From positions 1 through 54,382 of the forward strand of contig JAGBIJ010000031.1 of the NCBI GenBank assembly GCA_017935045.1: a DNA stretch of 54,382 nt. The letters are read 5' to 3'. Numbering within the stretch: the stretch's first letter is position 1; every line of letters begins with the position of its first letter. The notes beneath the pieces were generated by a model, which was given only the letters and a program-made list of their open reading frames with translations, searched no databases and was not told where the DNA came from. This stretch comes from Muribaculaceae bacterium (lineage in GTDB: Bacteria > Bacteroidota > Bacteroidia > Bacteroidales > Muribaculaceae). Shown piece after piece: positions 5,275-54,382 of the stretch. The position numbers and the translations under genes were made by a program.

Positions 5275-5374
5275 TATCCCCTAAAGGGTATAATCCACGC
5301 TATTGCGAATTATTTTATACCCTTAATGGTGTAATATGAATAAAATTTGCTATCTTTGCACCTTAAAGGGTATA
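5275..5374 (+). promoter_or_regulatory. hipB promoter with three HipB operator-like palindromes
   Basis: The -7 box TATCTTTG is at 5351-5358, about 20 nt upstream of the hipB ATG. Three palindromes, 5275-5292 (TATCCCCTAAAGGGTATA), 5316-5333 (TATACCCTTAATGGTGTA) and 5359-5374 (CACCTTAAAGGGTATA), share the half-site AAGGGTATA. The third overlaps the transcription start. This is the layout expected for HipB autorepression. Confidence 0.7.
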
Positions 5375-5378
5375 TTAT

Positions 5379-5582
5379 ATGACGCAGTTAGCTAAATACG
5401 TTAAGGAGATGCGCAAGCAGTTCGGGCTTACGCAGGTTGATCTGTCCCAGAAATCCGGGGTCGGTCTGCGCTTTGTGCGCGAACTTGAACAAGGGAAGAC
5501 AACCCTTCGCCTTGACAAGGTAAATCAAGTTCTTGCAATGTTCGGAGCAGAAATGACCCCGGCTAAAATCACTGAGGTATGA
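5379..5582 (+). CDS. hipB: HipB-type antitoxin / XRE repressor
   Basis: A 67-residue Cro/C1-type helix-turn-helix protein. The HTH spans about residues 6-60 (MRKQFGLTQVDLSQKSGVG, then FVRELEQGKTTLRLDKV). Length, downstream partners and the palindromic operators at 5275-5374 identify it as the DNA-binding repressor/antitoxin of a HipA-family module. Its TGA overlaps the next ATG (ATGA at 5579-5582), so HipS-like synthesis is coupled to it. It probably binds TATACCC-type half-sites and represses the operon together with the kinase. Confidence 0.9.
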   Translation: MTQLAKYVKEMRKQFGLTQVDLSQKSGVGLRFVRELEQGKTTLRLDKVNQVLAMFGAEMTPAKITEV

Positions 5583-5905
5583 AACAGGCAAATGTATTTC
5601 TAAATAAAACGCTCGCCGGAATTCTGACCGAAGATGATTTGGGTTATGAATTTCGCTACGATTCCGATTATCTGAAATCGGATGGTGCCGTTGCTGTGAG
5701 CCTGACTTTGCCGCTGACAGATAAGCCGTACCGCGACAATGTGCTTTTTCCGTTCTTTGACGGACTCATTCCAGAGGGTTGGCTCCTCGATATAGCGGAA
5801 CAGAGCTGGAAAATTTCAGCCCGCGACAGATTCTCATTGCTACTCGCCTGCTGTAAGGACTGCATCGGTAACATAAGCGTCATACCGACGCAAATGGAGA
5901 ATTGA
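5579..5905 (+). CDS. hipS: HipS-like protein (HipA N-terminal subdomain 1)
   Basis: A 108-residue stand-alone version of the HipA N-terminal subdomain, with the diagnostic VSLTLPLTDKPY and FPFFDGLIPEGWLL stretches and a C-terminal RDRFSLLLACCKDCIGNISVIP. In the tripartite HipBST systems described from enteropathogenic E. coli, this subdomain is a separate protein and acts as the antitoxin towards the kinase HipT. The separate hipB, HipS-like and kinase genes here fit that arrangement. The last residues (QMEN) come from the AT-rich flank of the inserted S23 element, so the native C terminus may have been altered. Whether HipS or HipB neutralises the toxin here is inferred only. Confidence 0.82.
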   Translation: MKQANVFLNKTLAGILTEDDLGYEFRYDSDYLKSDGAVAVSLTLPLTDKPYRDNVLFPFFDGLIPEGWLLDIAEQSWKISARDRFSLLLACCKDCIGNISVIPTQMEN

Positions 5906-5987
5906 GAATTGAGAGTTGAAAATTTAAAATTAGGCTACGCGATTCTCCAATCAAAACTCTCCATTTTAAACAGTAAATTCTAAATTC
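5894..5987. repeat. AT-rich left flank of the S23 element
   Basis: Contains tandem GAGAATTGAGAATTGAGAG and, at 5957-5987, a segment (CTCCATTTTAAAC then AAATTCTAAATTC) repeated in direct orientation at 6359-6389. The outer GGAGAATTGAGAATT run is roughly the inverse complement of the right flank. The gene is thus framed by related short repeats. Confidence 0.6.
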
Positions 5988-5995
5988 GAAAGATT

Positions 5996-6358
5996 ATGGG
6001 CGAGAATATAATTGTCAACAAAAGCGAAGACTTCGCCGTAAGAATAGTAAATCTCAATAAAATACTGAGGGGTCAAAGGGACGAATATATTATGTCCAAG
6101 CAACTTATTAGATGCGGCACAAGCATTGGAGCAAATATAGCCGAAGCACAGGAAGCTCAGAGTGATACTGATTTCATCGCAAAACTCTATATATCTCTAA
6201 AAGAATGTAGTGAGACACGATATTGGTTGAAATTGCTTTATCGAACAGAATATCTTTCCGAAAATGAGTATCATTCTATTTGCAATGATGCTTCAGAATT
6301 AAAGGCACTGCTGACAGCGATAATCAAATCGAAAAAGCAAAATATGAAATCGGTATAA
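5996..6358 (+). CDS. Four-helix bundle protein (S23 / 23S rRNA IVS-type)
   Basis: A 120-residue protein of the S23-like four-helix bundle family. Recognisable family segments are SEDFAVRIVNL, MSKQLIRCGTSIGANIAEAQ (a nearly invariant helix), DFIAKLYISLKECSETRYWL and a final helix to the C terminus. Members are encoded in intervening sequences of some 23S rRNA genes and as scattered single genes in Bacteroidetes, and resemble the Avd accessory protein of diversity-generating retroelements. Function is unknown; the basic bundle may bind nucleic acid. Here it lies between the HipS-like and HipT-like genes, flanked by short AT-rich repeats, so it looks inserted into the operon. Confidence 0.88.
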   Translation: MGENIIVNKSEDFAVRIVNLNKILRGQRDEYIMSKQLIRCGTSIGANIAEAQEAQSDTDFIAKLYISLKECSETRYWLKLLYRTEYLSENEYHSICNDASELKALLTAIIKSKKQNMKSV

Positions 6359-6392
6359 TTCTCCATTCTAAACTTTAAATTCTAAATTCTTC

Positions 6393-7337
6393 ATGAAGTG
6401 TCTTTACTGTTATAAGCCGTTGGCGGAAGGCGAAGTCGATTACCATAAGGCTTGTGCCCGCAAAATATTTGAATCGACGACGGTACCAGTGTTGCCCTAT
6501 ACACGTGCCAATATCAAGGAACTGGCAAGGGAGATAGTGACGGCAAGCACGACCGTAACCGGTGTTCAGGCGAAGCTGTCGCTCGATATCTCACGCGGTC
6601 ATGTCGGGAAGCCTCAGCGGTTCACTATCGTAGGACAGTGGGGAAGGTTTATACTGAAACCGCAGACAGACCGCTTCGCCAATCTACCGGAGAATGAAGA
6701 TCTGACCATGCACATGGCGGAGGCAGCCGGAATCAAGACCGTGCCACATTCGCTGATACGGTTTGCCGACGGCGAACTATGCTACATCACCCGTCGCGTT
6801 GACCGAACGAAGAAAGGCGCCAAGATTGCTATGGAAGATATGTGCCAGCTCTCAGAACGACTTACCGAGGACAAGTACAAAGGTTCATACGAGCGTATTG
6901 CCAAATTAATACGCCAACATTCCTCTGCCCCATTGTTAGATGTCGTCAACTTTTGGGAAGTGGTGCTGTTTTCATGGCTGACAGGCAATGCCGACATGCA
7001 TCTGAAGAATTTCTCCCTCTTCAGTCCTGCCGACAACTATATGCTGACCCCGGCATACGACCTCCTGTCAACCGCTCTCGCCATGCCTGAGGATGACGAA
7101 GAACTGGCTTTGACTTTGAACGGCAAAAAGAAACGGATAAAGCGGGAAGATTTCGAGAAAGCGATGCGCGACAGCGGCATGGATGAAAAAGCCATAGCTA
7201 ACCTTTTCGCCCGATTCTCCAAAGCCATCCCCAAATGGCATGAGCTGATAAATGCCTCGTTCCTTCCGACGGATTTACAGGAAGCCTATCATGACAAGAT
7301 AGATACAATGGCAAAGAGAATTTCAATCACAGAGTAA
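6393..7337 (+). CDS. hipT: HipT-like serine/threonine kinase toxin (HipA kinase domain)
   Basis: A 314-residue HipA-family kinase lacking the N-terminal subdomain supplied by HipS. It begins with a probable zinc site (Cys3, Cys6, His18, Cys21). The flexible Gly-rich/P-loop region TASTTVTGVQAKLSL spans residues 50-64; autophosphorylation of Ser/Thr here is how HipA kinases are regulated, and this one is Thr-rich. The ATP-binding Lys is in FILKP (Lys89), the catalytic loop NADMHLKN is at 199-206 with Asp201, and the metal-binding AYD is at 221-223. All catalytic residues are present. HipA/HipT kinases phosphorylate aminoacyl-tRNA synthetases (GltX or TrpS) and halt growth; the target here is unknown. 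The start is 34 nt after the S23 gene, inside its AT-rich flank. Confidence 0.88.
   Translation: MKCLYCYKPLAEGEVDYHKACARKIFESTTVPVLPYTRANIKELAREIVTASTTVTGVQAKLSLDISRGHVGKPQRFTIVGQWGRFILKPQTDRFANLPENEDLTMHMAEAAGIKTVPHSLIRFADGELCYITRRVDRTKKGAKIAMEDMCQLSERLTEDKYKGSYERIAKLIRQHSSAPLLDVVNFWEVVLFSWLTGNADMHLKNFSLFSPADNYMLTPAYDLLSTALAMPEDDEELALTLNGKKKRIKREDFEKAMRDSGMDEKAIANLFARFSKAIPKWHELINASFLPTDLQEAYHDKIDTMAKRISITE

Positions 7338-54289: not shown

Positions 54290-54382
<93 letters not shown>

What the first reader, a model, noticed from the sequence alone, without database searches (positions are those of the whole stretch)
5379..7337. HipBST-type module with an S23 four-helix-bundle gene inserted between antitoxin and toxin
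hipB, a HipS-like 108-aa protein and a HipT-like kinase form a tripartite system, but an S23/IVS-type gene with repeated AT-rich flanks splits HipS from HipT. The usual tight coupling is lost (34 nt of flank before hipT), and the HipS C terminus now ends in insert-derived residues. This may unbalance toxin and antitoxin, or the S23 protein may have become a fourth member.
Basis: partly seen in the sequence, partly recalled or inferred. Interest (0 to 1): 0.7.

Follow-up and report, generated by a model that had tools for sequence, protein, structure and literature searches.

The report
Hairpin-armed S23 insert splits toxin operon
A small DNA insert, one protein gene held between mirror-image runs of 7-letter repeats, sits between the antitoxin and toxin genes of a bacterial operon, and inserts of the same build surround this little-understood protein in several groups of bacteria.

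Summary
In detail: hipB, hipS, an S23/IVP gene and hipT lie at 5379-7337, with S23 and repeated AT-rich flanks between hipS and hipT. The module is HipBST-like. S23 is not a fourth member: of 91 distinct relatives with a measured hipS-hipT gap, none exceeds 231 nt, too short for S23, and 78 are 10 nt or less. The insert is a unit of about 500 bp (5893-6389): inverted arrays of a degenerate heptamer around S23. Its nearest sibling, in another genus, sits in the remains of a hip operon (promoter and hipB start kept, hipS and hipT gone), so the unit outlived hip there. The build is general: best period 7 in 74 of 85 family S23 loci against 3 of 85 far flanks; arms match their own partner, not another locus's; 10 of 11 plasmid loci, mainly cyanobacterial, agree on the period. 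At one other site two genomes differ by an inversion of the whole S23 segment between its arms (94% over 494 nt). Best reading: an IVS-like unit whose arms recombine with each other; hip interruption is a side effect. Movement is unexplained.

The parts
5279..5374 (+). three 14-nt boxes (5279, 5320, 5361; 41-nt spacing) before the hipB start, candidate HipB operator
   Evidence: the repeat finder; operator role inferred
5379..5582 (+). hipB, 67 aa, HTH protein
   Evidence: HTH_3 1.9e-8; couple_hipB 2.5e-25
5579..5905 (+). hipS, 108 aa; its stop codon TGA lies in the insert's left arm
   Evidence: (Couple_hipA 6.5e-28)
5893..6389 (+). inserted S23 unit, arms included
   Evidence: alignment with sibling L152 covers 5893-6388; empty relatives. 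Outer limits are approximate
5893..5931 (+). left arm A: degenerate 7-nt tandem array
   Evidence: array 5893-5931; lag-7 identity 0.84
5955..5987 (+). inner right arm A'1, inverted relative to A
   Evidence: A:A'1 duplex -14.0 kcal/mol
5996..6358 (+). S23 / 23S rRNA-IVP four-helix-bundle gene, 120 aa
   Evidence: solved relative 2rld E 1.3e-37; dN/dS 0.08 against the sibling L152
6357..6389 (+). outer right arm A'2; overlaps the last two bases of the S23 stop codon
   Evidence: A:A'2 duplex -14.5 kcal/mol; pairs with the left arm in the MFE fold
6393..7337 (+). hipT kinase toxin, 314 aa, TVT motif at the Gly-rich loop
   Evidence: (HipA_C 1.9e-50)

Best explanation
A HipBST-like operon carries an IVS-like S23 unit: one S23 gene between inverted arrays of a degenerate heptamer, inserted between hipS and hipT. 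Shown: the measured hip relatives are empty; inverted period-7 arms are the rule around S23 genes; S23 is under purifying selection; in a second genus the same unit persists after hipS and hipT are gone; at another site the S23 segment lies in opposite orientations in two close genomes, with the breakpoints in the arms. Inferred: the arms recombine with each other at the DNA level, which flips the segment and keeps the arms mirror-like while slippage changes the heptamers; inside operons the sense orientation is favoured because S23 relies on the host transcript; the transcript may form a stem that RNase III trims, as in 23S rRNA IVSs. The effect on hip is a side effect: hipT lost its overlap with hipS and must start translation on its own, probably uncoupling HipT from HipS. 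How a unit reaches a new site is not known.
For: No gap above 231 nt in 91 distinct relatives. Best lag 7 in 74 of 85 family loci against 3 of 85 far flanks and 11% of shuffles. Own arms score 26.1 against 11.2 swapped; 0 of 10000 permutations reach the own mean. 23 of 30 other Bacteroidota loci and 10 of 11 plasmid loci have best lag 7. dN/dS 0.03-0.20 in the 10 of 14 pairs where dS could be estimated. Sibling L152: window 5279-5477 (hip promoter and hipB start) aligns at 80%, no hipS or significant hipT hit, S23 unit intact. Inversion: L411 and L413 share flanks in one orientation (96.6% over 87 nt, 92.4% over 264 nt) and the interior inverted (94.1% over 494 nt), and 3 of 8 S23 copies at that site are antisense. 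G.T and A.C mismatches are equal in the arms (98 and 101), as DNA-level exchange predicts. S23 follows the upstream gene's strand in 57 of 62 resolved of 88 loci (baseline 380 of 525, P 1.3e-4). Coxiella IVS: S23 gene, closing stem, heptamers before S23, RNase III excision (PMC4990558, abstract and passages).
Against: No transcript or processing data. The whole-unit RNA fold is ordinary (z -1.33, 10 of 100 shuffles as stable). Inversion was seen at one site only: among 132 S23 loci no pair was inverted on both sides, against 51 same-orientation DNA-similar pairs. Only 41 of 85 left arms rank their own right arm strictly first, as loci share heptamers. Arms are weak in the phylum sample (11 of 30 at score 18 or more). 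The nearest sibling is in hip remains, so it does not show movement to a new place, and it is old (dS about 1.6). The next nearest, L199 (68% DNA identity over query 95-468), has no hip hit nearby but is more distant. Downstream orientation is barely above baseline (51 of 62, P 0.05).
Confidence: 0.72

Rival explanations
1. Passive unit: 7-nt arrays grow by slippage, template switching or recombination between inverted arms keeps them paired, and S23 genes ride along by ordinary recombination or horizontal transfer of neighbouring genes. S23 plays no part in the arrays and there is no dedicated mobility.
For: Equal G.T and A.C mismatches. Arrays without S23 exist: four Prevotella hip junctions, L230, L231, L234, L235, L237, L239 and L421 (S23 absent by HMM) and 9 arrays in 400 kb of G602. 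No RVT_1 match in this genome. The sibling shares the hip site.
Against: Period-7 arrays were found in S23-positive genomes (17 in 1.2 Mb of 12 genomes) and not in S23-negative ones (0 in 0.94 Mb of 7 genomes, 840 kb from two). Period 7 is nearly constant around S23 across phyla.
Confidence: 0.32
2. RNA-level reading: the arms are kept paired because the transcript must fold into a stem around S23 that RNase III removes, as in rRNA IVSs; DNA inversion is incidental.
For: Sense-strand bias; left and outer right arm pair in the MFE fold; own arm duplexes are stronger than swapped ones (-53.3 against -34.3 kcal/mol, 30 of 85 beyond the 5% point); rRNA IVSs behave so (PMC4990558).
Against: No excess of G.T over A.C mismatches; ordinary overall fold energy; antisense copies at one site.
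Confidence: 0.25
3. S23 has become a fourth component of this HipBST system.
For: Intact S23 ORF under purifying selection, sense, between hipS and hipT; its nearest sibling also lies in hip remains.
Against: No room for it in any of 91 measured relatives; purifying selection also at unrelated sites; in L152 it persists without hipS and hipT.
Confidence: 0.04
4. A MITE-like DNA transposon moved by a transposase in trans, with S23 as passenger.
For: Inverted arms, full and S23-less versions.
Against: Arm units differ between loci (50 heptamers in the 68 of 85 loci with a tandem pair), unlike fixed transposase ends; sense-strand bias. No target duplication was noticed by eye at the hip junction.
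Confidence: 0.08
5. Assembly chimera in this draft genome.
For: 62 contigs, 90% complete; one copy seen.
Against: The same unit next to a hip promoter and hipB start in another genome.
Confidence: 0.01

Closest known systems
S23p-encoding 23S rRNA intervening sequences (Coxiella IVS, PMC4990558: abstract and passages read; other species as cited there)
   Same: about 430-500 bp, one S23 gene between inverted ends; heptamer tandem repeats just before S23 in Coxiella
   Different: here in an mRNA operon between two protein genes; arms are degenerate 7-nt arrays; an extra inner right arm; S23 under purifying selection, whereas the Coxiella gene is said to decay
HipBST toxin-antitoxin system (PMC10627512, PMC8262856: passages read)
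   Same: order B-S-T, HipS with E-G-W, HipT without the N-subdomain, T[IV][TP] motif group
   Different: hipS and hipT separated by an insert; changed HipS end and hipT start
Heptanucleotide repeats: TAACTGA arrays of Beggiatoaceae (PMC4679880: two passages and the listed abstract start read); cyanobacterial STRRs (recalled)
   Same: 7-nt tandem units between genes
   Different: described as direct repeats of one sequence; here units vary by locus and flank S23 as inverted pairs
Avd of diversity-generating retroelements (PMC10053308, passages read)
   Same: PF05635 is said there to resemble Avd
   Different: no RVT_1 match in this genome; template and variable repeats not sought
23S_rRNA_IVP genes in cas loci (PMC3936711, passages read)
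   Same: S23 family genes inside defence loci, 18 genes reported there
   Different: that passage does not mention flanking repeats

Membership tests
HipBST toxin-antitoxin module | order hipB-hipS-hipT on one strand | tested here: met
   interrupted by S23
HipBST toxin-antitoxin module | HipS is the HipA N-subdomain 1 as a separate protein with a Glu and Trp contact | tested here: met
   Couple_hipA over residues 5-101; PEGW at 65-68, matched by motif only with E63/W65 of PMC10627512
HipBST toxin-antitoxin module | HipT core kinase without N-subdomain 1, S/T motif before the Gly-rich loop | tested here: met
   HipA_C over 54-281 of 314 aa; TVTG at 54, T[IV][TP] group in PMC10627512
HipBST toxin-antitoxin module | HipS neutralises HipT; HipT phosphorylates TrpS | not testable with these tools
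   needs experiment
23S rRNA IVS element (S23p type) | S23 protein gene | tested here: met
   PF05635 2e-29
23S rRNA IVS element (S23p type) | complementary ends that can form a closing stem | tested here: met
   A:A'2 -14.5 kcal/mol, paired in the MFE fold; overall z only -1.33
23S rRNA IVS element (S23p type) | located inside a 23S rRNA gene | tested here: not met
   lies between hipS and hipT; the only Rfam gathering hit in the window is 5S rRNA at 54291-54382. So it is called IVS-like, not a member
23S rRNA IVS element (S23p type) | excised by RNase III | not testable with these tools
   needs RNA work
Diversity-generating retroelement with Avd | reverse transcriptase | tested here: not met
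   0 RVT_1 matches in G000, 90% complete

The most novel reading that the evidence does not exclude
S23 genes and their inverted heptamer arms form a distinct class of minimal, invertible genetic element found in several phyla; the S23 pentamer recognises the 7-nt arrays and takes part in their copying or recombination, so the arms are rewritten in pairs while the architecture stays fixed. The 23S rRNA IVSs would be only the best-known landing place.
Probability: 0.3. Interest if true: 0.9.

Novelty: new variant of a known kind. Interest (0 to 1): 0.75.

Why it matters
S23/IVP genes are common (212 of 296 Bacteroidota genomes sampled) and the protein is described as having no known function (PMC4990558). 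A nearly constant period of 7, locus-specific units, mirror-paired arms and an inversion between those arms give a concrete handle on what the protein does and how rRNA IVSs arise. It also shows such units inside toxin-antitoxin, CRISPR, restriction and housekeeping operons, where they can break the overlap of partner genes.

Tried and rejected
S23 as a HipBST component: rejected on the gap data. REP-like family in this genome: a 21-nt arm pattern with up to 3 mismatches hit only this locus (5 hits). RNA-level covariation through G.U pairs: no excess. Unusual RNA stability: no. RT-driven homing here: no RVT_1 match. PADLOC: no family for S23. Consensus fold of two siblings: 6 pairs only.

Swapped-arm test inside 20 same-site groups: own above swapped in 16, tie in L160/L161, below in 3 (L244/L245/L253 14.3 and 15.0; L201/L205 23.0 and 23.5; L206/L207 29.5 and 30.0), groups whose arms are alike. 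Period-7 arrays in ten further S23-positive genomes were few (3, against 5 of period 8, in 400 kb).

I had taken the sibling L152 as lying at an unrelated place; searches show hip remains beside it. The claim that arm type follows the S23 clade at the PBP site holds for four copies but not for L411. 78, not 77, relatives have a gap of 10 nt or less. In consequence the interest rose slightly (0.72 to 0.75, inversion), the passive rival rose from 0.30 to 0.32, the transposon and chimera rivals fell, and an RNA-level rival was split off; the confidence of the best explanation, now reworded, is unchanged.

Literature: 10 searches, one of them on HipBST and two without any hit; no listing showed a paper on S23 genes with inverted heptamer arms. 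Most subscription papers and preprints are not held, so this does not prove that it is unpublished.
Full report
What is there. Pfam and NCBIfam name them HTH_3/couple_hipB, Couple_hipA, 23S_rRNA_IVP/TIGR02436 and HipA_C. A 33-nt repeat lies at 5955-5987 and 6357-6389 (88% identical) with an inverted copy in front of both. The window is contig C44 of a 2.2 Mb draft genome, 90% complete, in which this is the one S23 match above the family cut-off; three weak matches lie below it.

It is a HipBST-like operon. HipS matches the HipA N-terminal domain over residues 5-101, HipT has the kinase domain without it, HipS carries PEGW at 65-68 and HipT a TVT motif at 54, which fits the T[IV][TP] group and the Glu/Trp contact of PMC10627512 (passages). 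Three 14-nt boxes spaced by 41 nt precede hipB, a likely operator. Function was not tested.

The relatives are empty. Two searches gave 109 hipT loci besides the own one (capped lists, one genome per species as a rule); 5 lacked hipS in the stretch and 12 were duplicates, leaving 92 distinct relatives, 91 with a measured gap (L077 had no recognised hipT start). No gap exceeds 231 nt and tblastn found no S23 upstream of hipT in any of them. In 50 of 91 hipS and hipT overlap and in 78 the gap is 10 nt or less. Here it is 487 nt. In L006 (90% identical HipT) HipS ends IDRMEDGNG and hipT begins MDKC; in the window HipS ends TQMEN and hipT begins MKC. M-K/R-C starts are found in all 6 relatives with gaps of 60 nt or more and in 3 of the other 85.

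The same junction takes other inserts. Four Prevotella loci (L054, L057, L064, L069) have arrays of the same build with other sequences and no S23; L055 and L058 have an unrelated GC-rich repeat there.

The sibling. A DNA search of 397 family genomes found a near-full copy of the unit (query 21-509 of 516, 75% identity) in G171, another genus, aligning from 5893 to 6388 with arms and a conserved loop. Upstream of it, window 5279-5477 (hip promoter and hipB start) aligns at 80% over 201 nt; hipB is cut short, no hipS was hit and hipT gave only chance-level hits (0.023 at best). So two genera share the unit in a hip locus, and in one of them hip has decayed while S23 stayed intact (dN/dS 0.08). 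Of 132 S23 loci examined only these two show a hip gene at 1e-4. The next nearest relative, L199, has no hip hit. About 50 further rows are arm-only matches of 31-44 nt; the loci L230, L231, L234, L235, L237 and L239 among them have no S23.

Period 7 is general. PF05635 was found in 82 of 198 family genomes at 1e-10. I analysed 91 S23 loci: the window, 30 top-scoring loci fetched by the tool, and 60 that I chose from the lower-scoring rows of about 150 listed, counted by eye. Three truncated or N-rich loci and three near-identical copies were dropped, leaving 85. Lag 7 is the strongest from 4 to 12 in 74 of 85 near flanks and 3 of 85 far flanks; mean identity at lag 7 is 0.443 near and 0.240 far; shuffled near flanks give 11%. 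Units differ: 50 heptamers in the 68 loci with a tandem pair upstream.

The arms are mirror pairs. Upstream flank against reverse-complemented downstream flank scores 26.1 on average for the same locus and 11.2 for swapped loci; 68 of 85 own pairs reach 18 against 6.3% of swapped ones; 0 of 10000 permutations reach the own mean. Far flanks of 88 loci never exceed 15. Only 41 of 85 rank their own partner strictly first. RNA duplex energies agree in direction (-53.3 own, -34.3 swapped; 30 of 85 beyond the 5% point). Mismatches are as often A.C as G.T (101 and 98), so the constraint is not visibly on the sense-strand RNA. In 20 same-site groups own arms beat swapped ones in 16.

Breadth. In 30 top-scoring loci of the phylum sample 23 have best lag 7 (far 3 of 30) and 11 have arms of score 18 or more. 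Of 12 plasmid loci fetched from 25 hits, one (Bacillota, L270) has a broken S23 frame and was not analysed; of the other 11 (8 Cyanobacteria, 1 each Spirochaetota, Bacteroidota, Chloroflexota) 10 have best lag 7 (far 0) and 9 reach 18; the Chloroflexota locus is the exception in period. S23 occurs in 212 of 296 Bacteroidota genomes sampled. Ten neighbouring ORFs that I chose from nine loci belong to succinate dehydrogenase, PurH, MreB, a PBP, TsaD, a thiolase, NA37, GldL, HsdR and an aminotransferase; on plasmids S23 lies by cas2/cas1, hsdS/hsdR and helicase/methylase genes.

Orientation and selection. S23 lies on the strand of the upstream gene in 57 of 62 and of the downstream gene in 51 of 62 resolved loci, of 88 tried; against 380 of 525 adjacent pairs this gives P 1.3e-4 and 0.05. 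The median distance from the upstream stop is 65 nt. dN/dS is 0.03-0.20 in 10 of 14 S23 pairs; dS was saturated in the other four.

An invertible segment. After a PBP gene in one genus, 58 of 61 genomes have the gene and 30 loci were fetched. Eight have S23, five in the sense of the PBP gene and three (L403, L404, L413) reversed; 22 have none, one of them (L414) with S23 fragments between arms. L411 and L413 share both flanks in the same orientation (96.6% over 87 nt, 92.4% over 264 nt), but the 494 nt between, S23 and a terminator-like hairpin, are inverted at 94.1% identity, with the breakpoints in the arms. An inversion between the arms is the simplest account. It would also explain why arms stay mirror-like without a G.U bias. 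Elsewhere no pair inverted on both sides was found among 132 loci. Arm type follows S23 kinship for L389/L410 (87%) and L395/L398 (84%), but L411 has TTAATAG-like arms without being closer to the second pair. After purH two of ten loci have S23 and L421 a hairpin without it.

Free-standing arrays. Period-7 arrays numbered 9 and 5 in 400 kb each of two S23-positive genomes (one of the 14 near S23) and 3 in 400 kb from ten more; none was found in 940 kb of seven genomes without an S23 match at 1e-10, 840 kb of it from two. Suggestive, not settled.

How it most likely works. By analogy with 23S rRNA IVSs (PMC4990558) the unit is probably transcribed with hipB-hipS. The left arm can pair with the inner or the outer right arm with nearly equal energy (-14.0 and -14.5 kcal/mol), the second enclosing S23 as in the MFE fold (z only -1.33). 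On the DNA the arms are inverted repeats that can recombine. For hipT the consequence would be translation without overlap to hipS. All of this paragraph is inference. S23 is said to resemble Avd (PMC10053308), but no reverse transcriptase match was found in this genome.

Verdict. A real insertion of a unit related to rRNA IVSs, shared with one decayed hip locus, with inverted heptamer arms that I did not find described in ten searches of an open-access library. The hip interruption is one instance; the general architecture and the inversion are the interesting part.

Noticed in passing
window 5279-5374: Three 14-nt boxes with 41-nt spacing before hipB, probable HipB operator; partly kept in L152.
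   Followed up: partly
L055 and L058, just upstream of hipT: A different, GC-rich repeat sits at the same hipS-hipT junction in two Prevotella genomes, so this junction accepts more than one kind of insert.
   Followed up: no
L276, L281, L270, L278, L279 (plasmid loci): S23 lies inside defence loci: between cas2 and cas1, beside cas1, between hsdS and hsdR (broken frame), and between helicase and methylase genes in a cyanobacterium and a chloroflexotan. S23 genes in cas loci are already reported (PMC3936711).
   Followed up: partly
L045, L052, L053: Records titled Lachnospiraceae, Ruminococcus flavefaciens and Paenibacillus hold hipBST loci close to Bacteroidales ones, perhaps mislabelled metagenome bins.
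   Followed up: no
L389, L398, L411 and others at the PBP site: A terminator-like hairpin (by eye) lies between the S23 stop and the right arm and is inverted together with S23 in L413.
   Followed up: partly
L248, L249, L252, L254, L256, L267: Six loci share one S23 site before a thiolase gene; their heptamers differ while the arms stay partly paired (own 18.5, swapped 12.9; one of six ranks its own partner first).
   Followed up: partly
L171 and L190: A one-sided inverted similarity (82% over 193 nt) between the upstream flank of one S23 gene and the downstream flank of the other, possibly a second inversion.
   Followed up: no
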